DNA of 64,000 nt from the NCBI GenBank assembly GCA_944376335.1, contig CALWCH010000001.1, positions 154,172 through 218,171 of the forward strand, in the 5' to 3' direction. A program made the translations under genes and the position numbers. The notes beneath the pieces were generated by a model. It was not told where the DNA came from. It ran no database searches and worked only from the letters and a program-made list of their open reading frames with translations. This stretch comes from an uncultured Clostridia bacterium. GTDB lineage: Bacteria > Bacillota > Clostridia > Christensenellales > Borkfalkiaceae. Shown one piece after another: positions 19,112 to 33,754 of this stretch. The stretch's first letter is position 1. Every line of letters begins with the position of its first letter.

Positions 19112-19124
19112 GGGGGGGGGGGGG
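19112..19124 (+). repeat. Homopolymer of 13 G in an AT-rich intergenic region
   Basis: A run of 13 guanines stands in otherwise AT-rich noncoding DNA (19027-19230), about 107 bp upstream of the -35 box of the surface-protein operon. Such tracts change length by slippage and can vary promoter activity. The rest of this stretch shows no gene. Confidence 0.9.
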
Positions 19125-19230: not shown

Positions 19231-19259
19231 TTGACAGCGCCTTTTCCTCGTGCTATAAT
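19231..19259 (+). promoter_or_regulatory. Promoter of the SipW/TasA-like surface operon
   Basis: Consensus TTGACA (19231-19236), 17 nt, TATAAT (19254-19259). The mRNA leader of about 150 nt has two possible hairpins (GCATTT/AAAGTGC near 19320, and TGAAAG/CTTTCA bracketing 19364-19402), the second ending just before the GGGAGGAG ribosome site. Confidence 0.88.
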
Positions 19260-19413: not shown

Positions 19414-20718
19414 ATGGACTATAAGCCCGAGAGGGACACGCTCTCAGGATCGGAGGACCTGCAGCCCGCCGAGTCCTTTGCCGCACCGTCGGCAGAGGCG
19501 GTAGGGGAGCAGACTTCTTCGCCGTGTCCCGCACAGACGCCGCTCACCCAACTTCATGCACCCCAAGACGAGGCATACGCTCCCGTCGATGGTGCCGATC
19601 TCGCGCCCGAAGCCGCAGACTGCCCCGCCCCTCAAGACGGGGATTTCGGCGTGCCTTCCGAAGAGCCCCTCCCTTCCGCAGAAGGGGAGCCCGCCGCGCC
19701 CGTTGAGGAAACATCTCAGGGATCGCCCGAGGTTCAGGCTGCCGAGAGCGCGGGAGCGCCTGCCGCGGCTGGCGCGAAGCCCGTTCCCAAGCAGCACAGG
19801 GTGCGGGACGCCATCGTCATCACGGTGACGGTCATCCTCATCGTGCTGCTTTTGCCGCTGCTTTGCATCAACCTGACGCTCATCATCAAGTCGAGCATCA
19901 ATCCCGATGTGCCGCCCGATATCTTCGGTACCGCATTTCTCGCCGTGGAAGTCGACAGCATGGAGGGCGACGCGGAGGACTGCTTCGGCACGGGCGACCT
20001 CATCTGCATCGACCTTCTCACGCCCGAAGAGATCCGGGAACTGGGGGAGGGCAGTATCGTCAGCTTCCGCTCTTCGGACGGCGTGTACGTGTCGCTGCGC
20101 ATCGTCGAGGTCACGAAAAATCAGGCGGGGGAGACGACCGCCTTCGGCGTCATCGGCGACAACGACGTCATCGAGGGCGTCACCATTCCCTACACCATCT
20201 CCCCGGAGAGCGTCATCGGCGTCGTCACGAACAGCATCGACGGCCTCGGCGGCTTTGCGATGTTCCTGCAGACGCCCGTCGGCGTGCTCGTGTTCGTGGG
20301 CATTCCCGTCGTCCTGTATGTCATCTACGACATCATCCGCATCTCCATCGACAGCCGCAAGAAGCGTGCCGCCGAGGAGGCGAGACTGCGCGAAAAGGAC
20401 GAGGAGATCGCCCGTCTCAAGGCGATGGTCTCCGTCCCGGGTGCGGGCGAAGTGCCCGCCGAAGTTCCCGCGGAGGCCGAAGTCCCTGCGGAAGTGCCCG
20501 AAGAGGTGACCGAGGAAGTGCCTGCGGAGGCAGCCGTGGAAGCGCCCGCCGATAGCGAAGTGCCCGCGGAAATGCCCGCAGGACTTCCCGAAGAGTTTGA
20601 AATGCCCGCCGAAGTGCCCGAAGGGGAGCTTGCTCCCGAAGAGGCGCCCGCGGAAGAAATTGCGGAAGAGATCCCCGCACCTGTGCTCGAGGCCGCGGAG
20701 CCTCCCGTGGAGGGGTAA
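19414..20718 (+). CDS. SipW-like S26B signal peptidase paralogue lacking the catalytic histidine
   Basis: A 434-residue protein of unusual build. An acidic Pro/Ala/Glu-rich N-terminal tail (1-128) is followed by TM1 (about 132-158), an S26B-like outer domain (about 165-287), TM2 (about 288-310), a charged coiled-coil-like stretch (312-340), and a long VPAE-rich acidic tail. The domain aligns with the SipW encoded at 22570: the serine motif DSMEG (S182), the GDND aspartate (D249), and the pre-TM2 QTPVG are kept. The catalytic histidine of THRIVE is leucine (SLRIVE, L228). It may therefore be a noncatalytic partner, scaffold, or chaperone for signal-peptide processing. It has a GGGAGGAG ribosome site and is first gene of the operon. 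Confidence 0.75.
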   Translation: MDYKPERDTLSGSEDLQPAESFAAPSAEAVGEQTSSPCPAQTPLTQLHAPQDEAYAPVDGADLAPEAADCPAPQDGDFGVPSEEPLPSAEGEPAAPVEETSQGSPEVQAAESAGAPAAAGAKPVPKQHRVRDAIVITVTVILIVLLLPLLCINLTLIIKSSINPDVPPDIFGTAFLAVEVDSMEGDAEDCFGTGDLICIDLLTPEEIRELGEGSIVSFRSSDGVYVSLRIVEVTKNQAGETTAFGVIGDNDVIEGVTIPYTISPESVIGVVTNSIDGLGGFAMFLQTPVGVLVFVGIPVVLYVIYDIIRISIDSRKKRAAEEARLREKDEEIARLKAMVSVPGAGEVPAEVPAEAEVPAEVPEEVTEEVPAEAAVEAPADSEVPAEMPAGLPEEFEMPAEVPEGELAPEEAPAEEIAEEIPAPVLEAAEPPVEG

Positions 20719-20737
20719 CGCCCTCCCGAAAGACCGA

Positions 20738-20787
20738 TTGCGAAACCGACCTGCCGCCATACCGGGTCGGTTTGCAAATAAATTTTT
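20738..20787 (+). promoter_or_regulatory. Hairpin with T-run between operon genes 1 and 2 (attenuator or processing stem)
   Basis: TTGCGAAACCGACC (20738-20751) pairs with GGTCGGTTTGCAA (20765-20777) with one bulged G, followed by AATAAATTTTT. It sits just before the ribosome site of the TasA-like gene. It could terminate part of the transcripts or stabilise a processed 5' end. Confidence 0.55.
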
Positions 20788-20802
20788 AAAGGAGAATATA
20801 AC

Positions 20803-21390
20803 ATGGAAAGATCAGATAAGAAGCGCATCCTGACCAAGATCCTCGTCGTGATCGCCGCTCTGACGCTTCTGAGCTGCTGCTTCCTCGGCAGTACGTTTGC
20901 GAAATACGTGACGTCTGCAAGCGGTACCGGCAGTGTTCCCATCGCACTTTGGGATATCGATGTAACGAATAATGCCCAAACTTCGCTTACGTTTGATAAG
21001 CTTTCGCCTGCTGTTAGCGACAGTACGAATTCTACAGGCAGCAAAGATGTAATTATTATCACCAATAACAGTGATGTTGCGGCAACTGTTTCTTATACGG
21101 CTACCGTTAGTCCGAAGTGGAGAACGAGTGCGGAAAGCGATCCTCAGTTCGAATCGTACTCAGGACAATTCCAAAATGTCTTTTCTGTCACCGTTTCTAA
21201 TAGTGCAGGGGATTTAGTTTTGGATGCCAAGAACGGAACTGCAGATTCCCTTACGCTTTCTGCTGTGGTAACCTGGACAACGCTTAATGACGATGTCGAT
21301 ACCTGGTACGGCATTTGGCTTGAAAGTGTCACCGTCACGTTCAACTTCACCGCAACGCAGTCTTCCGAACTTCCTACCGCCCAACCATAA
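20803..21390 (+). CDS. TasA/camelysin-like secreted protein with SipW-type signal
   Basis: A 195-residue protein with a positively charged start, a hydrophobic segment (11-29), and the motif GSTFAKYVTS, comparable to GTWAAF at the SipW cleavage region of TasA. The mature part is a single beta-rich domain with IIITNNSDVAATVSYTATV, typical of TasA/CalY strands, and ends VTVTFNFTAT. It is the best candidate for a fibre-forming matrix subunit processed by the SipW at 22570. AAAGGAG precedes ATG 20803. Codons are more T-ending and AT-rich than neighbours, and a strong terminator follows, both as expected of a variable or highly made surface subunit. Confidence 0.7.
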   Translation: MERSDKKRILTKILVVIAALTLLSCCFLGSTFAKYVTSASGTGSVPIALWDIDVTNNAQTSLTFDKLSPAVSDSTNSTGSKDVIIITNNSDVAATVSYTATVSPKWRTSAESDPQFESYSGQFQNVFSVTVSNSAGDLVLDAKNGTADSLTLSAVVTWTTLNDDVDTWYGIWLESVTVTFNFTATQSSELPTAQP

Positions 21391-21429
21391 CCAAACCTAA
21401 AATCTCAAATCCATACATTTGAGGCAATT

Positions 21430-21484
21430 TTAAAGGGAGAGCCGCGCCGCTGGTATGGCGGCGGCGGGGCTGCCTCTTTTAAAT
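21430..21484 (+). terminator. Terminator-like hairpin after the TasA-like gene
   Basis: A long imperfect stem (TTAAAGGGAG... with ...CCTCTTTTAA, GC-rich core CCGCGCCGC/GCGGCGGCGG). It would let the TasA-like message exceed the downstream genes. A small stem CTCAAAT/ATTTGAG lies just before it. Confidence 0.6.
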
Positions 21485-21571
21485 TTCCTTGTCTTGAATT
21501 GCGTCCCGAAAATAAGCACTCTCTTTAGTCCATACCCGCAGGCAGATGTGCCCGTGCGGAAGGGGGGGAAT

Positions 21572-22573
21572 ATGACCGATTTTGAACATCTCGGCCCCGA
21601 TGAGGGCGGGAACGTTTTGCCCGACGAGGGCGAACGCGACATCGCCTCGGCGCCCGCCGAGGAACAAGCGGCACCCGAAGTGTCCGCTGAAGAACAGGCA
21701 GCGCCCGAAGCAGCGCCTTCGGAAGCGCCCGAAGAACAAACTATTTCTTCCGAAAACAACGCGGAGGAGCCCGCGGAGGCTTCTCATGCGCAGAATATCC
21801 CCGAGGGGAAACTCCCGAGGCGCGGCAAGGCATTTGCAGGCGACGGCCGCCGCATGGGGAAAGTCAAAAAAAGTGTGTGGTACGATGAAGCCGGCAACCG
21901 CCTCGGCGAGTTCGTCAAAGAGGGCGCGCACGTCCTCTTCCGCGACGGCGAGAGGAAGCTCGGCTATGTCGATGCCGATCATAACGTCTTTACAAACGAG
22001 CATGAGCACCTTGCCATCATCCGTCCCTTCGAACGGATGTGGTTCTTGTTGCCGCTCGCTTTTTTGTTGCTCGTCACCATCATCACGGGCGTCGTCAGCT
22101 CCTTCTTCGTGCTGCGCTCGAATGCGGACGACATCCCCGTGTTCCGCATCACCGATACGGAGGGCACCGACTGGGAGTTCATCGAGAACCTTCCCATCTT
22201 TGAGAACGATTACTTCGACGTGGACGCCATCGTCCCCGGCATGAGCGGCTCCTACCGTTTCATTCTCGAAAACCTCAACGACTACTCCCTTGACTACGAC
22301 CTCGTCTGCACCGAGGAGAACGACTTCGGCATCGACATCCGCTTCCGCCTCCTGCGCGACGGCCACTACCTCACCGCGGAGGAGGGCTACGACGACATCG
22401 AGAACATGGAGTACGACCTCACCATCATGGGCGGTTCGTCGCAGTACTTCGTGCTCGAATGGTACTGGGCGGACGACGACCCAGTCGACACCAACGCGGG
22501 TGAAAACGGCGCGGAGTACACCTTCACGCTCACCATCACGGCGGTCAAGCAAGAGGAAGGGGAGGCTGCATGA
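21572..22573 (+). CDS. Membrane protein with acidic cytoplasmic tail and TasA-like outer domain
   Basis: A 333-residue protein not matched to a named family. Residues 1-80 are an acidic Ala/Pro/Glu-rich tail like that of operon gene 1. Residues about 95-145 form a small domain (WYDEAGNRLGEFVKEGAHVL). One TM follows (about 153-175), then a beta-rich outer domain with PGMSGSYRFILENLNDYSLDYDL, resembling TasA/camelysin strand patterns. It lacks the cleavage motif, so it likely stays membrane-anchored and could tether fibres. ATG 21572 with AAGGGGGG is chosen over an upstream frame start. Its stop overlaps the sipW start by ATGA. Confidence 0.65.
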   Translation: MTDFEHLGPDEGGNVLPDEGERDIASAPAEEQAAPEVSAEEQAAPEAAPSEAPEEQTISSENNAEEPAEASHAQNIPEGKLPRRGKAFAGDGRRMGKVKKSVWYDEAGNRLGEFVKEGAHVLFRDGERKLGYVDADHNVFTNEHEHLAIIRPFERMWFLLPLAFLLLVTIITGVVSSFFVLRSNADDIPVFRITDTEGTDWEFIENLPIFENDYFDVDAIVPGMSGSYRFILENLNDYSLDYDLVCTEENDFGIDIRFRLLRDGHYLTAEEGYDDIENMEYDLTIMGGSSQYFVLEWYWADDDPVDTNAGENGAEYTFTLTITAVKQEEGEAA

Positions 22574-23115
22574 AGCGGGCGCTCTCCGTCCTGTCCATCG
22601 TCCTCCGCGTCGTCCTCATCGCCCTTGTCGGCATTTTGCTCATCTACAACATCTATGTGATGGTCGCAAAGCTCGCCTTCAAGCAGCAGATGCCCGTCTT
22701 TTTGGGCTTTGCGACGGCGGCGGTCCTCTCGGGCAGCATGGAACCCGCCATCAATACGGGCGACTACATCGTCACCCTCGCGAAGGACGGCTACGAAGTG
22801 GGCGATATCGTCATGTATGAAAACGACGGCAGCTACACCACCCACCGCATCGTGGAGGAGACCGAGGAGGGCTTCCGCACGATGGGGGACAACAACGGCG
22901 GGTCCGTCGACCCGTGGATCGTCCATGAAGAGGACATCGTGGGGGAAGTGGTGCTCGTCCTGCGCGGCTTCGGCAGCGTTGCCGCATTCTTTCAGACCCC
23001 CTTGGGGATGTTCATCATCGTCATCGCGGCGGCGCTCATCTGGGTGCTGTGTGACTTTTTGAGCCGCAGAAACAAAAAAGACAAAAAGGAGGAAAGCCAT
23101 GAGGCGGAACCTTGA
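22570..23115 (+). CDS. sipW: Signal peptidase I, SipW type (S26B)
   Basis: A 181-residue ER-type signal peptidase. TM1 is about 10-35. The catalytic serine is S56 in LSGSMEPAI, the histidine H92 in TTHRIVEE, and the aspartates are D107 in MGDNN and D114. A second TM (about 145-165) is followed by a charged tail. The Ser-His-Asp set matches Bacillus SipW (S47, H87, D106), which trims TasA and TapA. It is translationally coupled at both ends: ATGA with the upstream gene and a 17-nt overlap with the next. The likely substrates are the operon's own T-[FY]-[AG]-[KR]-Y proteins. Confidence 0.88.
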   Translation: MKRALSVLSIVLRVVLIALVGILLIYNIYVMVAKLAFKQQMPVFLGFATAAVLSGSMEPAINTGDYIVTLAKDGYEVGDIVMYENDGSYTTHRIVEETEEGFRTMGDNNGGSVDPWIVHEEDIVGEVVLVLRGFGSVAAFFQTPLGMFIIVIAAALIWVLCDFLSRRNKKDKKEESHEAEP

Positions 23116-24622
23116 CGCATCCGTTCCTTCGGGTGCGGAAAAAACGCAATATCCGCTGATGAAATATCTCAGCCTGCTTCTCGCCGTGACGCTTCTCTTC
23201 TCCGGCGTGACGTTCGCACGCTATTTCACCGGCGGCGCGGTCTATTCCTCCGTCGGCATCGCAGCCTTTGATGCGACCTATTCCATCGACCGCATCAATG
23301 CGACATCGTTCGGCAATCAGGCCTATTGGATCGAGACGGGCAATTCCGGTTACGTCCCGCAGGGCGAAAACACCGCCATCACCGTGGGCATCACCTTGAA
23401 GAACAACGGCGACACCGACGTGCATCCCACCCTCCACTTGGAGGGGCCCGCCGACTATTGGGACAACATCGCCCTGCAGTTCTCCACGTCCCGAAACATC
23501 GCCGTGGAGACCGTCCTCACCCCGCAGTTCGTCATCGCCGACCTCATGAAAGAGAGGAAAGTGATAGAAGAGGACGACCCCAACTACGGGAAGGAGCATT
23601 ATATCGAGTACGGGGACTATAAAACGTGGGACAACGAGCCCTGGCTGACGGGGGAACCCTCCGAGGATACGGACGAAGGCTCCGAAGGTTCGGGCGAAGG
23701 CTCCGAAGGTTCGGGCGAAACTCCCGAGAATGAGATCGGTTACTCCGACGACTTCGACCCCTTGGGCGACGTGACCGCACAGCTCACCCTGAACGGCGGC
23801 CTTACGGAGAATGATGACGGTACCGTCGAAGGCTCCGTCACGGCAACTTGGGGCGAAAGCAACGAGAACACTTTGACCATCTCCGCGAAAGAGGAGACGC
23901 GCGACTATTCCGTCGGGTTCGTCCGCGAGGACGACAACGGCCTTCTCTCGCCCATCTACGTCGACTGCAAAAAGGAGATGACCATCTATTCCATCGACAT
24001 CGACCTCGCCGCCCTCAAAGTAGCCGCAAAGCAGGGCGAGGGGGCGAGCACGCAGCCCATCGTCGTCTGGCTCACCTGGACGAACGCCGCCCCCAACAAC
24101 TCCCAAGAAGCAAAAGAGGATTTTTGGACGCAGCTGGCGCAAGGGGAGTCGTTTAAGATCGAGAGCAACGGCGATGAGATAGACATCACGGGCTATCACT
24201 TCGACGTCTCGGGCATTCCCGTGACCGACGCGAGCGGCGAACCCGTGACCGATGAAAACGGCAGCCTGACCGGCGAAACGACCACCGTCCGCGTCAAGCA
24301 GACGTTCGTCGAAAATGCAGACGGAACGGCGGGGGAACTTCAGACCGAATACTTCCACGTCGAGACCCTCGAGGGCGATGACGGTGCCTACGCTCACCCG
24401 CTTATGAAGGTAGAGGGGCAAGAGAACATCTATAAATGCGATAACGCTGACCCCGTCTATGTCAGCCTCAAAGATATCGACGGCACCTTCGCCGGGAACG
24501 ATGTCAACATGATCCGCTACGAGACCGATCAACAAGCGAATATCACCTACGCGCCCATCCAGCAGCGCGCATTCGGCGTGCGCTTTTCCGCGACGTTCGT
24601 GCAAAGCTCGGAGCGGCCCTGA
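23099..24622 (+). CDS. Large secreted surface protein with SipW-type signal
   Basis: A 507-residue protein. After a short polar start comes a hydrophobic segment (about 22-38) ending VTFARYFTGG, the same motif as in the TasA-like protein. The mature part has TasA-like strands (AITVGITLKNNGDTDVHPTLHL), a Ser/Gly/Glu linker with a perfect two-copy repeat (residues about 194-207), and further beta-rich regions. There is no LPXTG or C-terminal TM. AAGGAGG lies before ATG 23099 within sipW. A role as accessory fibre or anchoring protein is inferred from operon context only. Confidence 0.7.
   Translation: MRRNLDASVPSGAEKTQYPLMKYLSLLLAVTLLFSGVTFARYFTGGAVYSSVGIAAFDATYSIDRINATSFGNQAYWIETGNSGYVPQGENTAITVGITLKNNGDTDVHPTLHLEGPADYWDNIALQFSTSRNIAVETVLTPQFVIADLMKERKVIEEDDPNYGKEHYIEYGDYKTWDNEPWLTGEPSEDTDEGSEGSGEGSEGSGETPENEIGYSDDFDPLGDVTAQLTLNGGLTENDDGTVEGSVTATWGESNENTLTISAKEETRDYSVGFVREDDNGLLSPIYVDCKKEMTIYSIDIDLAALKVAAKQGEGASTQPIVVWLTWTNAAPNNSQEAKEDFWTQLAQGESFKIESNGDEIDITGYHFDVSGIPVTDASGEPVTDENGSLTGETTTVRVKQTFVENADGTAGELQTEYFHVETLEGDDGAYAHPLMKVEGQENIYKCDNADPVYVSLKDIDGTFAGNDVNMIRYETDQQANITYAPIQQRAFGVRFSATFVQSSERP
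23678..23719 (+). repeat. Two tandem 21-bp repeats in the surface-protein linker
   Basis: Two identical 21-bp units (23678-23698 and 23699-23719) encode GSEGSGE twice. The unit is in frame, so changes in copy number would lengthen or shorten the linker without a frameshift. Confidence 0.9.
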
Positions 24623-24637
24623 GCATAAGGAGCAGCT

Positions 24638-27600
24638 ATGAAAGAAAAGACAAGGAAAATTCTCATCATGGCCGTGATGGCGGCGCTCATCATCTCGCTG
24701 ATGGCGGCGTCGCTTTGCTATACCTTTACCTACGGCCGCTACTCGGGCGGCAGGCTGGACGACAACAGCACCTACGACGACCTCATCGACTTCGTCGGCG
24801 CAACGGCGTTCGAAGTCAGAACGCCCGACGAGTTCGTCAACGCCGTCGAAAACGGCTACTCCTACATCAAGATCGCGGATAACGCCGAAAAGCCCTTCGT
24901 GATTAACAACGACATCGCCGATGTCTACACCAACCTCGTCCTCGACGTCAACGGTACGACCGTCATCCGCAACAGCCGCAACCCCGTCCTCGACGTCCGC
25001 CGCAGCATCTCCGTCGTCCTCGTCTACGACTCTTCGGAGGAGGGCTCGGGCGGCTTCTACAACCCCGTCGGCTCCGCTCTGCAGACGAGCGGCGGCTCTC
25101 TCACCGTCGGCTCGGGCGTCTACGAAAGCGGCCCCAAGAGCAGCGTAACCTCCACGCTCCCCACAGCAGGCTCCGCCTACCTCGTCACGCGAACAGACCG
25201 CAAGAGCACCTACGGCTCGGCAAGCCAAGTCACCGATTTGCCCCTTATTTCCGAGCCGGCGGAGAGAGCCATCGGCGACGTTTATCTGGAAACAACGCCA
25301 ACCGGCTATAACTCCCTCATCACAGCCGACACCTACCTTCTCTACACCGAAGTCCAAAACGCCTTCGTGGGCAGCGGCCAAACTGCCGATGGCACCATCC
25401 CCGACTCCTCCGCCCCCGCCGACCCCGACAACCCCGTCGTCTTCCAGTCCGGTCAGCTCTACATCAACTGCGAGAAATTTACGGTGGAGGGAGACACTGA
25501 GACAACGACCTACTCTGCTGACGCCTTCAACCCCGTCTGCAACGTCGCCTCGTGCGATTTCTACTACTATTATCCCGTCGGAGCGGAGGGTACGAAGGAA
25601 TCTCCTCAGACCTACGCCGTCGTCTACGGCTATAACGACGTCAACTCCCTCGCCAAAACCGAGGACACCGACCTCACCGAATACGAAGGCGGCACGCAGC
25701 TCGTCTGGCCCTATGCCGCCATCCGCTCGGTAAGAGACGGCACCGTCGGCGGCAACACGCACGCGCGCGGCGGCGCGTTCACGACCAACTTCGGCACCGA
25801 CAACACCTACGGCATCCTCTCCGTCGGCGGCGAAATGACCGTCGGCACCGAAAGCGCCACCGCCCCGCCCACCTTCACGGCAGTGGGGGAGGGCACCTGC
25901 ATCGGCATGTCCGCGCAGACCGGCGACACCCTCACCATCGCCAGCGGCACCTTCTCGTCCGAGGTGGGCGACACCATCCTCATGCGCGGCGGCGAAATGA
26001 CCGTCACCGGCGGCACCTTCACAAAGAGCGGCAACAAAGCCCGCCCCTCGGGCGGCTTAGAAGATATCGAAGCCTCCCGCACCGCACTCATTCACATGCT
26101 CGGCGGCGAACTTACCATCGACGGCACCGTCACGGGTGACGAAACCAACCCCGTCTACTCCGTCAACATGACGGCAGAGAGCCCCAACAATACCCCGCTC
26201 ACCAACGTCTTCGGCATCTACAGTGCAGAGGACGACACTTCCGGAAGGGCAGCGGCAGGCACCGTCTCCGTCTCCGGCTGCAGGATCGCCGTCCACGGCA
26301 CCTATTCCGCGGGCGTCCTTTCCTCCGCAGGCACGGTCAACCTCGGCGGCACGGCGGCGGGCAAGGCCGAGACCAACATCACCGTCAATAACAGCATTTC
26401 AAACAACCTTCTCACTTCCTCCGCGGTGAGCTCCGAAGGCGGCACCATCAACCTCAATAACACCGTCAATATCACGTCCGACTCCCTCGGCATCACGGCG
26501 CGCGGCACGATCACCGTCAACGGCGGCACGACGAAGGTAAATACCCCTAACGCCACGGGCGTCTATGTCAACAGCGGCACGCTGACGGTCAAGAACAACG
26601 CAACGCTCACGGTAGACAGCGCGATTTCCAACGCTTCTTACAGTTGGGTCACGCCCCCGGGAACGAGCGAACCTACGAACGCTCCCAACATCTACAACGG
26701 TGTATATGTGCAGAACGGCTCGCTGAACTCCAACGGCACCCTCAACGTTACCTTCACGGGCGTGCAGAGCGATGATGTGGATATGGGGAATAATAGCGAT
26801 TTGAGCTATGTTAGCCGTTGGATTGATGGTAGCCGGGTTCTCGTAAGCGATGACGTTTACCGCAATTTCCAGGTCAAGAGCTATGCCGTGCGCGTAGAGG
26901 GCAGCAATCAAGTTGACACGGAAGGGAATCCAATCGATAAAGTCACCATCGCGGCGGGAAGCATCACTAACTCGGTCGGCGGCGGCGTGCTCGTCAACGG
27001 CGGCACGGTGACGTTGGGTGCAGCGGTTACAGACAATGATGGGACTGTAACTCGCTCCGGCCCCACGGTCTCGGCAACAGGCCCAGGTTATTACAATGAT
27101 ACTCCCTATGCCCCTTCCGATTCTACTGCGCAAAACTGGCAGTATTATGTTCCGAGCTCAGGCGGCGAGGCGGTCAAGATTGTGGGCGGCACGCTTACGA
27201 TTCACGGAGGCAATTATTCGGCAGAACAGGGCAACGGCATTTTGGTCAACGGCGGCACGAGCAATATTTACGGCGGCACCTTCATCGGGAACGATAAGTA
27301 TCATACCGAAGGGGAGAATAACCCTCAGGCAGGCCCTGGAGCATCTTATGCCTTTAAGGTCCTCAATGGTACGGCGAACGTTTATGGCGGCAATTTCACC
27401 ATAAAGGAAGGCGGTACTGGCAGCGGTGCATTTGTAACAGGTAGCCCTGCCTCCGGCTCAACGGCAGCGATCTATGCAGCGGCTAATATCTACGGCGGCA
27501 GCTTTGTGGTGAGTGAGGGCGTCGGCGGCGGCCAAGCTGGCTTTAGTGTGCTCAAATACGCGACTGTTACATTTGAGACTGACAATAACGCCGATATTCA

Positions 27601-28186
27601 GGTGGCGGGTGACGCAGCGGGCATGACCGTCGAGAAAACGAGCGGCAATTCCAACGCGACCATTAACATCAACGGCGGCACGTTTAAAAGTACTAACAAT
27701 GAACGTGGAAACAGCGACGGCATTTGGTACGGCAACGGAACGACAAAGGTAAATATCACCGCGGGTCAATTTACGGGCGCCAATCGCTCAGGATTTTACT
27801 TTGACGCGAACTCGTGGAATGAAGGGGAAAACAAAGGCAATGTCCAAATCTACGGCGGTACGTTTATAGGGAATCCAGGTTCAAGAGGGGGAGGCTCTTA
27901 TTATGTAAACGGTGCCATCGGTGCGGATTCGGAACGTGCTGGCAGCGGCCTAGGACACGAAATCCAAGTCTCCGACATTGTCGTCTACACCGGCAACACA
28001 TATGCAACGCATATCTATTACTCCAATGATTCTCAAAACATTGGAACTACCGGAACAGCGTTTACAAAAATTGTGGACGATCTGGAAGAGGCAGACAGAT
28101 GGGGTGAATTTGGTGCTGCAGACTTCCGCAATAATTATAAAATCAACCAAACCACTTGCTGCTATGTAAGAGTGGATATTGCATAA
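24638..28186 (+). CDS. Giant beta-helix surface protein with SipW-type signal
   Basis: An 1182-residue protein. The hydrophobic segment (8-27) ends FTYGRYSGGR, a third variant of the operon's signal motif. The rest is a right-handed-beta-helix type repeat region with over a dozen turns such as GGEMTVTGGTF, VNGGTVTLG, IYGGTFIG, and ININGGTFKS. No sortase motif, TM, or cell-wall-binding repeat is visible, so attachment may need the other operon products. AAGGAG precedes ATG 24638. From about base 26,700 the codons shift to AT-richer use, suggesting a mosaic origin. Adhesin or matrix scaffold is the likeliest role. Confidence 0.7.
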   Translation: MKEKTRKILIMAVMAALIISLMAASLCYTFTYGRYSGGRLDDNSTYDDLIDFVGATAFEVRTPDEFVNAVENGYSYIKIADNAEKPFVINNDIADVYTNLVLDVNGTTVIRNSRNPVLDVRRSISVVLVYDSSEEGSGGFYNPVGSALQTSGGSLTVGSGVYESGPKSSVTSTLPTAGSAYLVTRTDRKSTYGSASQVTDLPLISEPAERAIGDVYLETTPTGYNSLITADTYLLYTEVQNAFVGSGQTADGTIPDSSAPADPDNPVVFQSGQLYINCEKFTVEGDTETTTYSADAFNPVCNVASCDFYYYYPVGAEGTKESPQTYAVVYGYNDVNSLAKTEDTDLTEYEGGTQLVWPYAAIRSVRDGTVGGNTHARGGAFTTNFGTDNTYGILSVGGEMTVGTESATAPPTFTAVGEGTCIGMSAQTGDTLTIASGTFSSEVGDTILMRGGEMTVTGGTFTKSGNKARPSGGLEDIEASRTALIHMLGGELTIDGTVTGDETNPVYSVNMTAESPNNTPLTNVFGIYSAEDDTSGRAAAGTVSVSGCRIAVHGTYSAGVLSSAGTVNLGGTAAGKAETNITVNNSISNNLLTSSAVSSEGGTINLNNTVNITSDSLGITARGTITVNGGTTKVNTPNATGVYVNSGTLTVKNNATLTVDSAISNASYSWVTPPGTSEPTNAPNIYNGVYVQNGSLNSNGTLNVTFTGVQSDDVDMGNNSDLSYVSRWIDGSRVLVSDDVYRNFQVKSYAVRVEGSNQVDTEGNPIDKVTIAAGSITNSVGGGVLVNGGTVTLGAAVTDNDGTVTRSGPTVSATGPGYYNDTPYAPSDSTAQNWQYYVPSSGGEAVKIVGGTLTIHGGNYSAEQGNGILVNGGTSNIYGGTFIGNDKYHTEGENNPQAGPGASYAFKVLNGTANVYGGNFTIKEGGTGSGAFVTGSPASGSTAAIYAAANIYGGSFVVSEGVGGGQAGFSVLKYATVTFETDNNADIQVAGDAAGMTVEKTSGNSNATININGGTFKSTNNERGNSDGIWYGNGTTKVNITAGQFTGANRSGFYFDANSWNEGENKGNVQIYGGTFIGNPGSRGGGSYYVNGAIGADSERAGSGLGHEIQVSDIVVYTGNTYATHIYYSNDSQNIGTTGTAFTKIVDDLEEADRWGEFGAADFRNNYKINQTTCCYVRVDIA

Positions 28187-28259: not shown

Positions 28260-28349
28260 GCAGAGATGGCGGAGCGGCTGAACGCGCACGATTCGAAATC
28301 GTGTTAGGCAGTGATGTCTACCAGGGTTCAAATCCCTGTCTCTGCGCCA
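28260..28349 (+). tRNA. tRNA-Ser (anticodon CGA)
   Basis: A 90-nt class II tRNA with a long variable arm. Acceptor GCAGAGA pairs with TCTCTGC. The anticodon stem CACGA/TCGTG holds loop TTCGAAA with anticodon CGA. The T-arm is CAGGG-TTCAAAT-CCCTG, and GCCA is encoded. Its 3' 59 bases form the attachment site of the adjoining integrative element, whose insertion kept the tRNA intact. Confidence 0.95.
28291..28349 (+). repeat. Left attachment site (59-bp direct repeat within tRNA-Ser)
   Basis: Begins ATTCGAAATCGTG in the anticodon loop and runs to the encoded CCA. It is identical to 30982-31040. Confidence 0.92.
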
Positions 28350-28371
28350 AACATTTTGAAAAGGCCATGTT

Positions 28372-29262
28372 TCATACATGGTCTTTTTTCATGCTCGAAA
28401 AGCCTGAATCGGGGTGTAAACTGAACTTCGCGGCCTCTTTTCGCTTGTGTCGGTCTAAAACGTGCGTATAAATATTGAGCGTAATATTTGGCGTGGAATG
28501 CCCCACAAGCTGTTGGCAGACACTAACACTGATTTCGCTCTCCGCACATCGGGTCACGAACGTGTGCCGAAGCTCGTGAAAGTGGTGCGCAGGGCAATAT
28601 TTTTTGAACACTTGGCTCACATAGGAGACATTATAGGGAAAAATGCGGCCGTCCTTGCACTCAAAGCGGGTGCCTCGGTCTCTTTTCTGCTGTTCCGCTT
28701 GCCGACGGAGCACTTCTTTGAGCTCTTCGGAGAGAGGAAAACAGCGGTAGCTGTCCTCGGTTTTGGTGCCGCGGATGACGATGAGCTCTTCCTTCCAATT
28801 CACGTCCGACCACTTCAAAGCGCAAATCTCGGCGCGGCGGGCTCCCGTGAGGGCGGCGAACCAAAAGAGTTGCTCCATGCGGTCACCTTTGATAGCCTCG
28901 AAAAAAGCGTCCTGTTCCTCGATGGTGAGTGCCTCGCTCTTTTTCTTGCGGTACTTCACGGGCTGGGCATTCTCCATTACGTTGCGCGAGAGGAGCTCGA
29001 CCTGCACGGCCTTCTTGAACGCGCTGTGCCACACTTGGCGGGCGTACTTGCGTTGCCTCGGCGCCTTGACGGAAGAGAGGGCGCTGTCTGCCGTGAGCAC
29101 GTTGACCTCATCGAGGGGAAGCTCTTTGAACCATGCGGGCGTATGCAGGCGCAGGATCTGCTCGATATTGCGCACGCTGTTTGCGGCAAGGTCTTGCTTA
29201 TAGGTGATGAACCAAAAGTCGAGCCACTCGCCGACTGTTGGCATGGTGTTGAAGTCGAACAT
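28372..29262 (-). CDS. int: Tyrosine recombinase (integrase)
   Basis: A 296-residue phage-type integrase. An N-terminal SAM-like arm domain (about 1-95) precedes the catalytic domain. Catalytic residues are visible in TGARRAEICALKW (first Arg), RGTKTEDS (Lys), HELRHTF (His-x-x-Arg), QLVGHST (His), and LNIYTHV (nucleophile Tyr). It begins close to the left attachment site and reads toward the tRNA. The start at 29262 has no ribosome site, and TATAAT lies only 3 nt before it, so the true start or cotranscription with rep is unsettled. Confidence 0.92.
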   Translation of the reverse strand: MFDFNTMPTVGEWLDFWFITYKQDLAANSVRNIEQILRLHTPAWFKELPLDEVNVLTADSALSSVKAPRQRKYARQVWHSAFKKAVQVELLSRNVMENAQPVKYRKKKSEALTIEEQDAFFEAIKGDRMEQLFWFAALTGARRAEICALKWSDVNWKEELIVIRGTKTEDSYRCFPLSEELKEVLRRQAEQQKRDRGTRFECKDGRIFPYNVSYVSQVFKKYCPAHHFHELRHTFVTRCAESEISVSVCQQLVGHSTPNITLNIYTHVLDRHKRKEAAKFSLHPDSGFSSMKKDHV

Positions 29263-29350
29263 TGCATTATACCATAGGCATATAGGCTATTAGAGGGGAG
29301 CTTCTCTTCTGCTCGCGATTGAGGAGACGGGAAACACGGCTTGCACGGGT

Positions 29351-30172
29351 CTATGCGCGTCTTTTAGGCTGAATACAGGGGCTCGCCCCTGTACCCCGAT
29401 GGGGGCTCTTGCGCCTTGCAGAGGGCTTCTCGGGGCGTCTCCTGCAAGTAATGCGGGTATAGGTGACAACGCCGTAGTATTCGCTTTCGTAAGAGGAAGT
29501 GAACACGTCCACGACGTCCTCGAGGGCGGCAAGTTCTTCCGCGATGGCCTCTTCATCGGTGAGCACTTCGGGGGCGTTGAGGCCGTGGCTCATGGAGTAG
29601 CACTTGCGGCCGATGAGGCGCTCGTCCATGTTCTCTTTGGTCATGTACTTGGAGACATAAGCGCCCACGTTTTGGGCGTTGTCGGTGCGGTTGAGCTTGA
29701 TAAAGCCTTTGCCCCACACTTTGGCAAGGGCGTTGACGTCGACGAAGGGAAGGTCACAGACGAGATGGAAGTGAACGGCTCCGCGCGTTTGGAACTCGAT
29801 GACGCAGACGTAGCGGATATGACCGAAGCGAAAGGAAAGGCGTTTCGTGAAGCGGTTGAAGTCAGCCCATGCGCGGTCTAAGTCGGTGACGTTCTCGGCG
29901 AAGGTGAGCGTGAGGAACTTATCCAAAGCGGGGTTGGCGTTGATGGTGCGGCAGACCTTTTGGCGGGCGCGGTTGGCAGTCTTGCGGCGGTTGTCCTGCT
30001 TGACTTCGGCAGAAGTCAGTAAGGCGGCGGCACGTCCTTTGCGGGCTCCTCCGCCTTTGAGCACGGGCTCCTCATAGTCATACACCTCGACGACATTCCC
30101 CGAGCGGATGAGCTTGCGCGAGAAGCACTTCCTCGGCGGGATATGCGGTTGTAGGTTGTTAAGCCTCTTCAC
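29351..30172 (-). CDS. rep: Two-tyrosine HUH replication initiator (phiX174 gpA/filamentous-phage gp2-like)
   Basis: A 273-residue rolling-circle type initiator. Motif 1 is FLTLTFAEN (86-94). Motif 2 is VHFHLV with the metal-binding H134-x-H136. Motif 3 is AYVSKYMTK with Y172 and Y176, the Y-x-x-K-Y spacing of phiX174 gpA and gokushovirus replication proteins. It nicks one strand and joins it covalently to tyrosine. GTG at 30172 is preceded by GGAGAA on the minus strand. It presumably replicates the excised circle. A phiX-like nick sequence lies upstream on the same strand. Confidence 0.85.
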   Translation of the reverse strand: MKRLNNLQPHIPPRKCFSRKLIRSGNVVEVYDYEEPVLKGGGARKGRAAALLTSAEVKQDNRRKTANRARQKVCRTINANPALDKFLTLTFAENVTDLDRAWADFNRFTKRLSFRFGHIRYVCVIEFQTRGAVHFHLVCDLPFVDVNALAKVWGKGFIKLNRTDNAQNVGAYVSKYMTKENMDERLIGRKCYSMSHGLNAPEVLTDEEAIAEELAALEDVVDVFTSSYESEYYGVVTYTRITCRRRPEKPSARRKSPHRGTGASPCIQPKRRA

Positions 30173-30337
30173 AAATTCTCCAAATAAATACCTTAAATCA
30201 AGTTAAGCGGGCGCGGGGAGCCGCGCCCCCCGCTGACCCCCCACAGGGGAGCGTTCAGGCGGGGGGGAGCGGAAGCTCTCCCTCGCCCCGGGGTACCCTA
30301 CCATTGCAAAGTGCAATACAAGCGGGACGAGATGTTT

Positions 30338-30390
30338 CTATAATATCAAGGGCAAAGGCAAAGCCTTTGCGGGGTAGATGCAAAGGCTTT
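30338..30390 (-). other. Candidate nick site and origin of the integrative element
   Basis: On the minus strand 30350-30338 reads CTTGATATTATAG, sharing CTTGATATTA with the phiX174 gpA nick region. Next to it are overlapping hairpins: AAAGCCTTTGC (30360-30370) with GCAAAGGCTTT (30380-30390), and an alternative pairing GCAAAGGC/GCCTTTGC just before. The rest of 30173-30330 holds GC-rich stems near 30205-30295 and no gene. Confidence 0.5.
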
Positions 30391-30399
30391 ACGGAGAAT

Positions 30400-30516
30400 T
30401 TGTAGGCGGCGACCTACAATATGAAATTGGCGCTTTATCTACCCCATATCTCCTACAAATGTAGGATAATGAGATTATACTCCCATGATAGTAGGAAGTC
30501 AAGCATTTTTCCTACT
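30400..30516. promoter_or_regulatory. Three GTAGG-type palindromes, candidate operators for the XRE regulator
   Basis: Palindromes TTGTAGG(6 nt)CCTACAA at 30400-30419, TCCTACAAATGTAGGA at 30451-30466, and AGTAGGAA(11 nt)TTCCTACT at 30490-30516 share the core GTAGG/CCTAC. The last lies directly before the -10 box TATAAT (30524-30529) of the regulator gene, as expected of autorepression. Confidence 0.6.
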
Positions 30517-30536
30517 TTTGTGGTATAATTTTTATC

Positions 30537-30947
30537 ATGGAAGATATTATGATAAGAACAGGAAAAGGAAGAGGCGAATTTGTAGACGATATCCGTATTA
30601 TGACGGCATTTGCCATGAGCTTAAGAAAGTTGCGGAAAGCAAGAGGGCTCTCCTTAGTGGCCTTAGGGAAAAACACAGGCATACCAAATCAAACACTCTC
30701 GACGTATGAAAACGGAAAGCGGATACCTTCTATCACACAGGCGTTCCGCATAGTAAACTATTTCGGATATACGATTGAGGACTTCATCATGAACGGGCTC
30801 GGCCTATTAGAGCCAGACCTCTTGGAACGAGATGAAATATCTCATCCCGATTATCCATGCTATGCACTGTCGGAGGACGAAGCGCGAGAAATGATAATAT
30901 CAGATAATCTCGCAGAAATCATGGAGCGACGGAAGCGGAAAAATTAG
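30537..30947 (+). CDS. XRE-family transcriptional regulator of the integrative element
   Basis: A 136-residue protein with a Cro/CI-type helix-turn-helix (about 28-82): MSLRKLRKARGLSLVALGKN, PNQTLSTYENGKRIPS, and FRIVNYFGYTIEDFI. The C-terminal part is short and charged, without a LexA-like peptidase motif. It is divergent from rep and int across the operator and origin region and probably controls lysogeny-like maintenance. ATG 30537 is only 7 nt after TATAAT, fitting a leaderless mRNA as for lambda cI; ATG 30549, with GGAAGA before it, is the alternative start. Confidence 0.85.
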   Translation: MEDIMIRTGKGRGEFVDDIRIMTAFAMSLRKLRKARGLSLVALGKNTGIPNQTLSTYENGKRIPSITQAFRIVNYFGYTIEDFIMNGLGLLEPDLLERDEISHPDYPCYALSEDEAREMIISDNLAEIMERRKRKN

Positions 30948-30981
30948 TTTTCTAATATTTAAGCCGCAAATTATTCAGCAT

Positions 30982-31040
30982 ATTCGAAATCGTGTTAGGC
31001 AGTGATGTCTACCAGGGTTCAAATCCCTGTCTCTGCGCCA
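30982..31040 (+). repeat. Right attachment site (59-bp direct repeat)
   Basis: Identical to the 3' 59 bases of tRNA-Ser, followed by what should be the original tRNA terminator. Confidence 0.92.
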
Positions 31041-33478: not shown

Positions 33479-33485
33479 GAGCCCA

Positions 33486-33754
33486 TAAACCGATGAGGTG
33501 AAGTAGTAGCGGGCACAATTTGAGCCTACAGAGAGCCTTCGTTTGCTGGAAGTAAGGCGGCTCAAAGCGCGTGAATGGATCACCGAGGGCGGCGGCAAAA
33601 GGGTCAAAATTGGCTCCAAGTAGTTGTCGACGGGGCTTTCCCGTTACAGAAAGAGGGCATCAACAGCGTGCCTAAAAAGAGGCGGCATTAGCCGTAAAAT
33701 CGGGTGGCAACACGGAAAATCTTCGTCCCGAACGAACGATTTCCGTGTTTTTTG
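33486..33754 (+). promoter_or_regulatory. T-box riboswitch with tryptophan specifier
   Basis: Stem I starts near GATGAGGTGA. The AGTA motif (33502-33505) faces GAA-TGG-A, giving the loop-E fold with specifier TGG (33576-33578), the Trp codon, and TCACC closes the stem. The T-box element GGGTGGCAACACGG (33702-33715) follows. The terminator pairs ACACGGAAAATC (33710-33721) with GATTTCCGTGT (33738-33748) plus T-run. Uncharged tRNA-Trp would favour antitermination and raise expression of the downstream trpB2. Note TGGCAAC in place of the usual TGGNACC. Confidence 0.85.

What the first reader, a model, noticed from the sequence alone, without database searches (positions are those of the whole stretch)
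19414..28186. Six-gene SipW/TasA-like surface operon with its own processing enzymes
From one consensus promoter the order is: SipW-like protein, TasA-like small protein, TasA-like membrane protein, true SipW, a 507-residue surface protein, and an 1182-residue beta-helix protein. Three secreted products end their hydrophobic signal with STFAKY, VTFARY, or FTYGRY, a shared T-[FY]-[AG]-[KR]-Y pattern that would suit a dedicated SipW. Several genes overlap by 4-17 nt. In Bacillus, SipW-TasA-TapA makes amyloid-like matrix fibres. Here the set is larger, with giant substrates, no sortase signals, and an extra peptidase paralogue. I infer a biofilm or adhesion fibre system not matching the described tapA-sipW-tasA form.
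Basis: partly seen in the sequence, partly recalled or inferred. Interest (0 to 1): 0.82.

Follow-up and report, generated by a model that had tools for sequence, protein, structure and literature searches.

The report
Conserved SipW-processed surface fibre operon
An uncultured relative of Candidatus Gallimonas carries a conserved six-gene set that probably exports and assembles a protein surface fibre, using one working and one apparently dead signal peptidase; it resembles, but is not, the biofilm-fibre genes of Bacillus.

Summary
The six genes are real and in the stated order. They form a conserved module: marker gene P3 occurs in 13 of 103 genomes of the genus (own included), and all 13 show this gene order, one cut by a contig end and one split over two contigs. 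Five genomes of other genera have the complete order, four in two other families.

Corrections: only P4 keeps the Ser-His dyad. P1 is a degenerate SipW paralogue here (His to Leu), in a clade of seven species whose dyads are all broken. It still evolves under constraint (dN/dS 0.13 in one core, 0.19 in another pair; 0.47 for the window's pair), recalling dead SipA of streptococcal pili. "TasA-like" is not shown as homology: neither the mature P2 profile nor the SipW-substrate signal model supports it. P3 is a membrane-anchored paralogue of P2 without a cleavage motif.

Extra: P2 looks like an exchanged allelic cassette, and in 8 of 18 operons (not this one) the promoter spacer holds a G7-G10 tract, suggesting phase variation. 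Fibre formation is inferred. New variant of a known kind.

The parts
19112..19124 (.). run of 13 G upstream of the promoter; in 8 of 18 related operons a G7-G10 tract lies inside the -35/-10 spacer instead
19231..19259 (+). operon promoter TTGACA-17-TATAAT with extended -10
   Evidence: aligned with three relatives
19414..20718 (+). P1: SipW-lineage signal-peptidase paralogue with long Pro/Ala/Glu-rich tails (cytoplasmic by inference); Ser182 kept, catalytic His replaced by Leu228; predicted pseudo-peptidase
   Evidence: NF046067 E 9.4e-13, below its cut-off; dN/dS
20803..21390 (+). P2: proposed major secreted subunit; signal with T-F-A-K-Y at 20893-20907; mature part highly divergent between close relatives
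21431..21480 (+). strong hairpin after P2 with a short U-rich tail, alignable in four relatives; candidate partial terminator or mRNA-stabilising end
21572..22573 (+). P3: beta domain (84-151), one predicted TM helix (156-182), ectodomain homologous to P2; no cleavage motif; proposed membrane anchor or acceptor
22570..23115 (+). P4: SipW/ER-type signal peptidase with Ser56, His92, Asp107 intact
   Evidence: TIGR02228 75.5 bits over cut-off 51.85
23099..24622 (+). P5: large secreted protein with motif T-F-A-R-Y at 23210-23224; N-terminal region related to P2
24638..28186 (+). P6: giant Gly-rich repeat protein (beta-helix by look of the sequence only, fold not predicted), motif T-Y-G-R-Y at 24728-24742
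   Evidence: no Pfam or NCBIfam hit at E <= 1, no PDB sequence hit at E <= 1

Best explanation
A conserved export-and-assembly operon for a proteinaceous surface fibre. P4, the intact SipW-type peptidase, cuts P2, P5 and P6 just after the small residue of [TS]-x-[AGSQ]-[KR]-[YF]. P2 is the main subunit: after cutting, its free N-terminal stretch (low confidence in the monomer model) could complement a neighbouring beta-sandwich, as in TasA. P3 carries the same ectodomain on an uncut membrane helix and would anchor or start the fibre. P1, a SipW paralogue without its catalytic His, would bind precursors or signal peptides without cutting, a role like that proposed for SipA in streptococcal pili. 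P5 and P6 are the large surface or adhesive components. Shown: gene order, conservation, residue loss, constraint, P2-P3 homology. Inferred: cutting site, polymerisation, anchoring, role of P1, adhesion.
For: Same order in 13 of 13 genus genomes with P3 and in 5 genomes of other genera. P2: 35 of 35 aligned members carry T-[FLY]-A-[KR]-Y; P5 15 of 16 and P6 15 of 16 fit the wider motif, P3 0 of 17 (caveats in the Full report section). P4 keeps Ser and His in 13 of 13. The P1 dyad is broken in 7 of 13, one clade in the tree (91/84), with dN/dS 0.128 in the core of one pair and 0.193 in another. P2-P3 ectodomain homology without signal: hhalign 95.3%, E 2.4e-8. P3 model: beta domain, TM helix, beta ectodomain. 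SipA lacks catalytic residues yet is essential for pilus polymerisation (PMC4049620, abstract and passages). BsaA polymers need SipW in C. perfringens, with a predicted readthrough terminator after bsaA (PMC7395162, abstract and passages).
Against: No solved structure clearly matches P2 or P3: Foldseek gave nothing at E <= 0.001, and TasA is not among the 50 matches listed for either. Mature P2 shows no profile similarity to camelysin-family proteins of the order, and TIGR04088 does not hit the operon's signals. The P2 model has modest confidence (pLDDT 77.7, pTM 0.61). Constraint on dead P1 is weaker elsewhere: whole P1 0.346 in G081/G062, 0.373 and core 0.466 in the window/G034 pair; single pair estimates, untested for significance. 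Six of 13 genus operons and all 5 complete ones outside the genus keep an intact P1 dyad, so a dead P1 is not a feature of the whole system. 90 of 103 genus genomes lack P3.
Confidence: 0.55

Rival explanations
1. A surface-display module without a fibre: P4 simply matures three separate secreted proteins, with P6 as the main adhesin or glycan-binding protein and P2 as a monomeric coat or decoy.
For: No polymerisation evidence; P2 does not match TasA by sequence or among the listed fold matches; P6 is by far the largest product and comes last in every operon where the complete order was seen.
Against: Homologous ectodomains of P2 and membrane-anchored P3, tandem P2 copies in two species and a hairpin after P2 fit an abundant subunit with an anchor.
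Confidence: 0.27
2. P1 and P4 divide the substrates: P1 is a second working peptidase, in this genome by other catalytic residues.
For: Ser, His and Asp of P1 are intact in 6 of 13 genus operons and in the 5 complete operons outside the genus; the window's P1 keeps Ser182.
Against: In the window clade the His is Leu or Tyr in 6 of 7, and the Ser is Ala or Asp in 3 of 7 (Phe in 2 more by the Met-anchored reading), while constraint persists in two pairs.
Confidence: 0.12
3. A carbohydrate-use locus: the operon works with the alpha-amylase upstream.
For: An alpha-amylase gene lies directly upstream (Pfam E 2.1e-47); a frame with the same start also precedes the operon in G034 and G062.
Against: A separate promoter, and no such frame in the 3 kb held upstream in G017.
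Confidence: 0.05

Closest known systems
tapA-sipW-tasA of Bacillus subtilis
   Same: SipW-type peptidase beside secreted substrates; a helper protein beside the subunit; the T-x-A-type signal end is a likeness recalled from TasA, not tested
   Different: six genes; no TapA; no PF12389 or TIGR04088 hit; uncut membrane paralogue P3; paralogous P1; giant P5 and P6
sipW-bsaABCRSD of Clostridium perfringens (PMC7395162, abstract and passages read)
   Same: sipW operon in Clostridia, several secreted products, a predicted terminator with readthrough after the first subunit (here a hairpin after P2)
   Different: no two-component genes among the six; P1, P3 and P6 have no counterpart named in the passages read; homology of P2 and BsaA not tested
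SipA of Streptococcus pyogenes pili (PMC4049620, abstract and passages read)
   Same: signal-peptidase relative that lost catalytic residues, kept in a surface-fibre gene set
   Different: SipA serves sortase-built pili and belongs to the Ser-Lys type; P1 is of the SipW/ER type in a set whose products in the window lack LPxTG-like ends
B. cereus sipW-tasA/calY/capP (PMC13082335, passages read)
   Same: sortase-independent filaments with several SipW substrates and an assembly factor
   Different: CapP is a secreted DUF4047 protein, not a pseudo-peptidase

Membership tests
TasA/camelysin (PF12389) | subunit matches PF12389 | tested here: not met
   no PF12389 hit for P1-P6 at E <= 1 or among the families listed for 35 P2 members at E <= 0.1; mature profiles hhalign 0.2%
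TasA/camelysin (PF12389) | SipW-cognate signal (TIGR04088) | tested here: not met
   own-genome search at E <= 10 gave 4 places, none in the window; two over cut-off, both on C7
tapA-sipW-tasA operon | TapA (TIGR04087) present | tested here: not met
   no TIGR04087 hit for P1-P6 at E <= 1; 3 of 35 P2 members weakly, best E 0.0011, the window's P2 none
TasA/camelysin (PF12389) | donor-strand polymer | not testable with these tools
   needs structure of fibres
SipW/ER-type signal peptidase (P4) | family profile over cut-off | tested here: met
   TIGR02228 75.5 against 51.85
SipW equivalog of Bacillus (NF046067) | score over the curated cut-off of 190 | tested here: not met
   P4 63.9, P1 48.1 bits
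SipW/ER-type signal peptidase (P4) | Ser-His dyad | tested here: met
   13 of 13 P4
SipW/ER-type signal peptidase (P1) | Ser-His dyad | tested here: not met
   window: Ser kept, His to Leu; dyad broken in 7 of 13 species
SipA-like pilus pseudo-peptidase | loss of catalytic residues with retained constraint | tested here: met
   clear in two pairs, weak for the window pair (core 0.466)
SipA-like pilus pseudo-peptidase | sortase pilus context | tested here: inconclusive
   no LPxT[GAS] in the last 50 residues of the operon proteins picked in seven loci (that pick missed some genes) or of the window's P2, P5, P6 by eye; the genome was not searched for sortases
C. perfringens BsaA | sequence homology to BsaA | not tested
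   BsaA sequence was not fetched

The most novel reading that the evidence does not exclude
A sortase-independent Gram-positive fibre system found complete in three families of this order, whose major subunit is a swapped, hypervariable cassette, whose promoter is phase-varied by a poly-G spacer in many species, and whose assembly in one clade uses a signal peptidase turned into a non-cutting assembly factor.
Probability: 0.3. Interest if true: 0.78.

Novelty: new variant of a known kind. Interest (0 to 1): 0.62.

Why it matters
SipW-dependent fibres have, to my knowledge, been studied mainly in Bacillus and C. perfringens. A conserved larger version in uncultured Clostridia would show a second design with a membrane-bound subunit paralogue and a peptidase that lost its dyad yet stayed, giving a natural series (intact to dead P1) for asking what a dead signal peptidase does in fibre assembly. 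A variable subunit and, in relatives, a possibly phase-variable promoter would mark it as exposed to host or phage selection.

Tried and rejected
TasA identity of P2: the first profile comparison with four PF12389-family proteins of the order gave 81.8%, but with 15 rows (12 distinct; three genes appear in two overlapping loci) and the signal peptides removed it fell to 0.2%, so the likeness was the signal. PDB sequence searches with P2, P3 and P6 profiles gave no meaningful match. Riboswitch in the 5' leader: no Rfam match over the gathering score there. The hairpin as a dispersed repeat: one place only in the genome with up to 2 mismatches. Two-peptidase reading for this genome: held unlikely because of the lost His. 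'M-x-G in place of M-E-P' as a mark of dead enzymes: rejected, since P4s with an intact dyad also have it. Paper searches for SipW with pseudoenzyme or with Christensenella found none; other papers may exist outside the library.

Full report
The window lies in a draft genome (1.75 Mb, 44 contigs, 86.4% complete).

Observation. All six frames exist at the stated positions. The promoter matches 12 of 12 bases with an extended -10. Junctions: 84, 181, -4, -17 and +15 nt, so only two overlap.

Conservation. A profile of P3 found 13 of 103 genomes of the genus, the window's own included. In all 13 the order is P1-P2-P3-P4-P5-P6. G022 ends inside P5 at a contig end and its P4 is broken in the held sequence; P6 of G078 and G077 is cut by the end of the stretch fetched; G001 is split over two contigs (P1 and three P2; P3 to P6), so its middle junction is not seen; G001 and G076 have three tandem P2 genes. 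In the order, 23 of 396 sampled genomes matched; I fetched 20 of the 23 regions (the window's own, G442 and G376 were not fetched). Five show the complete order: G269, G237, G225, G345 (two other families; the last three of one genus) and G407 (same family, other genus). G389 has P3-P6 up to a contig end. The rest are partial or rearranged, for instance P5-P6-P2-P3-P4 in transcription order in G274. In the class, 10 of 391 matched, the window's own genome included. The system is thus patchy: 90 of 103 genus genomes show no P3, some of them incomplete. The later counts over 17 or 18 operons leave out G389 and the partial or rearranged clusters.

Signals. All 35 P2 members aligned carry T-[FLY]-A-[KR]-Y. 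In the 17 operons the wider motif was found in 19 of 19 P2, 15 of 16 P5 and, by the script, 16 of 16 P6 (one P6, of G407, begins with V). The missing P5 (G345) came from my wrong coordinate; one search shows SLARY there. One counted P6 (G076) was a wrong place: its site is TYGLY, as, so the true count is 15 of 16. P3 has no such site (0 of 17). The 15 camelysin-family rows (12 distinct) end their signals with other letters (such as TFAWF, TFALF, TLAYF), none with [KR]-Y. TIGR04088 finds two C7 proteins over its cut-off but nothing in the window.

Peptidases. P4 has Ser56, His92 and Asp107. P1 aligns with SipW but has Leu at the His position. Across 13 species P1 keeps Ser, His and Asp in 6. 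In the other 7 the dyad is broken: the His is Leu or Tyr in 6; the seventh, G017, has a His whose place depends on the alignment (one residue early, in register with a one-residue insert), but its Ser is Asp. The Ser is Ala in G081 and G062; in G001 and G076 it is Phe if the Met is taken as anchor, while searches align Ser and Thr there ahead of an insert. The window and G034 keep Ser. P1 and P4 form separate groups in a 54-row tree (100/93), and the broken P1s one clade (91/84; 89% of bootstrap trees). dN/dS: G081/G062 core 0.128 (181 codons), whole P1 0.346; G001/G076 whole 0.193 (dS only 0.043); window/G034 whole 0.373, core 0.466; for comparison, intact P1 of G075/G071 0.256. All are below 1, most clearly in the first core and the second pair; none was tested for significance. 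SipA is the published parallel (PMC4049620, abstract and passages).

P2 and P3. Their ectodomains are homologous (hhalign 97.0%, E 8.4e-11; 95.3%, E 2.4e-8 without signals); with the smaller first alignments the same comparison had given only 1.8%. The P2 model (pLDDT 77.7, pTM 0.61) is a helix, a stretch at 31-49 mostly under pLDDT 50, and a beta-rich part. P3 (pLDDT 79.6, pTM 0.52) has a beta domain, a long helix taken as the TM segment and a beta ectodomain. Foldseek gave no match at E <= 0.001; weak P3 matches include donor-strand pilins (CfaB, PapA, FimG) among many other beta proteins. P5 shares its N-terminal 85 columns with P2 (96.7%), signal region included.

Variation. In G081/G062, P1, P3 and P4 are 87-96% identical in DNA and the P2 signal 96%, but mature P2 only 56%. 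In the window/G034 pair mature P2 is 53%, between a 92% signal and a 94% hairpin; P1 there is 75%. In G071/G075 the P2 region is 90-100% identical while flanking windows are 33-76%. P2 synonymous divergence is likewise out of line with its neighbours in these pairs. This fits exchange of P2 alleles by recombination; no recombination test was run.

Expression. The hairpin after P2 is strong in five aligned operons (z -1.8 to -3.8). By a simple scan it is the strongest hairpin after any gene in 15 of 17 operons, not in G075 and G077 (G022 has two gaps only, and the scan runs into coding sequence at short gaps, as after P2 of G078). In 8 of 18 operons (6 of 13 in the genus, 2 of 5 outside) a G7-G10 tract lies within the -35/-10 spacer, giving spacers of 16-18 nt (two of them with imperfect -10 boxes); the near pairs G081/G062 and G001/G076 differ in tract length. 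In the window the tract (G13) lies upstream of the -35 and not in the spacer, so phase variation is not claimed for this genome. The 13 genomes hold 1346 near-perfect promoters (sum) and 25 poly-G ones, 6 of them this operon's and a seventh in the P1-P2 gap of G071 (the spacer ranges of the two patterns differ). Assembly errors in G runs cannot be excluded. A precedent in a gut commensal is G-tract slippage that switches pilus gene clusters in Bifidobacterium breve, there inside a gene (PMC9187656, abstract and passages).

Mechanism, steps marked. Shown: order, conservation, residue loss, constraint, P2-P3 homology. Inferred: cutting by P4, polymer, anchoring by P3, P1 as assembly factor, adhesion by P5 and P6. 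TasA polymerises by an N-terminal donor strand and TapA is held to start it (PMC9674648, PMC10151520, abstracts and passages); that this applies here is by analogy. The catalytic Ser and His of SipW are named from general knowledge.

Check of this report: on recounting I corrected the P1 residue table (G017, G001, G076), the number of poly-G sites looked at (31) and the PF12389 status of the C7 proteins. None of these changes the odds.

Noticed in passing
G-handle genomes of the genus; own genome G000:C6:20788-20817 (L155): Poly-G tracts inside sigma-70 spacers are common in the genus: 63 of 103 genomes have at least one, reversed-pattern control zero in the rows shown. Of 31 sites in the 30 loci fetched (one part of all matches), by eye about 13 precede lipoprotein-like genes, 2 type IV pilin-like genes and 3 this operon; possible genus-wide phase-variable surface genes.
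   Followed up: partly
window 28260-31040: tRNA-Ser(cga) followed by a small integrated element (tyrosine integrase PF00589, replication protein PF23343, a likely XRE-type regulator by eye); the last 59 bases at the tRNA 3' end (28291-28349) are repeated at 30982-31040.
   Followed up: partly
G000:C7 about 50.4-54.1 kb (L035): A second SipW-type locus in the same genome with three secreted proteins (TFALF, TFAWF, TFAWF), two matching PF12389 (one over its cut-off), and a SipW-like peptidase.
   Followed up: partly
L033 and L057: Three tandem P2 genes instead of one.
   Followed up: no
G071:C6:32107-32133 (L141): A poly-G promoter-like site on the operon's strand in the 1053-nt gap between P1 and P2.
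   Followed up: no
window 33484-33733: T-box leader (108.5 bits).
   Followed up: no
L034 7882-9303: The N-terminal part of this P3 frame reads through repeated peptide stretches that look like translated intergenic repeats.
   Followed up: no
L163 (G521:C17): Four P3-like places within about 5 kb in a genome outside this order.
   Followed up: no
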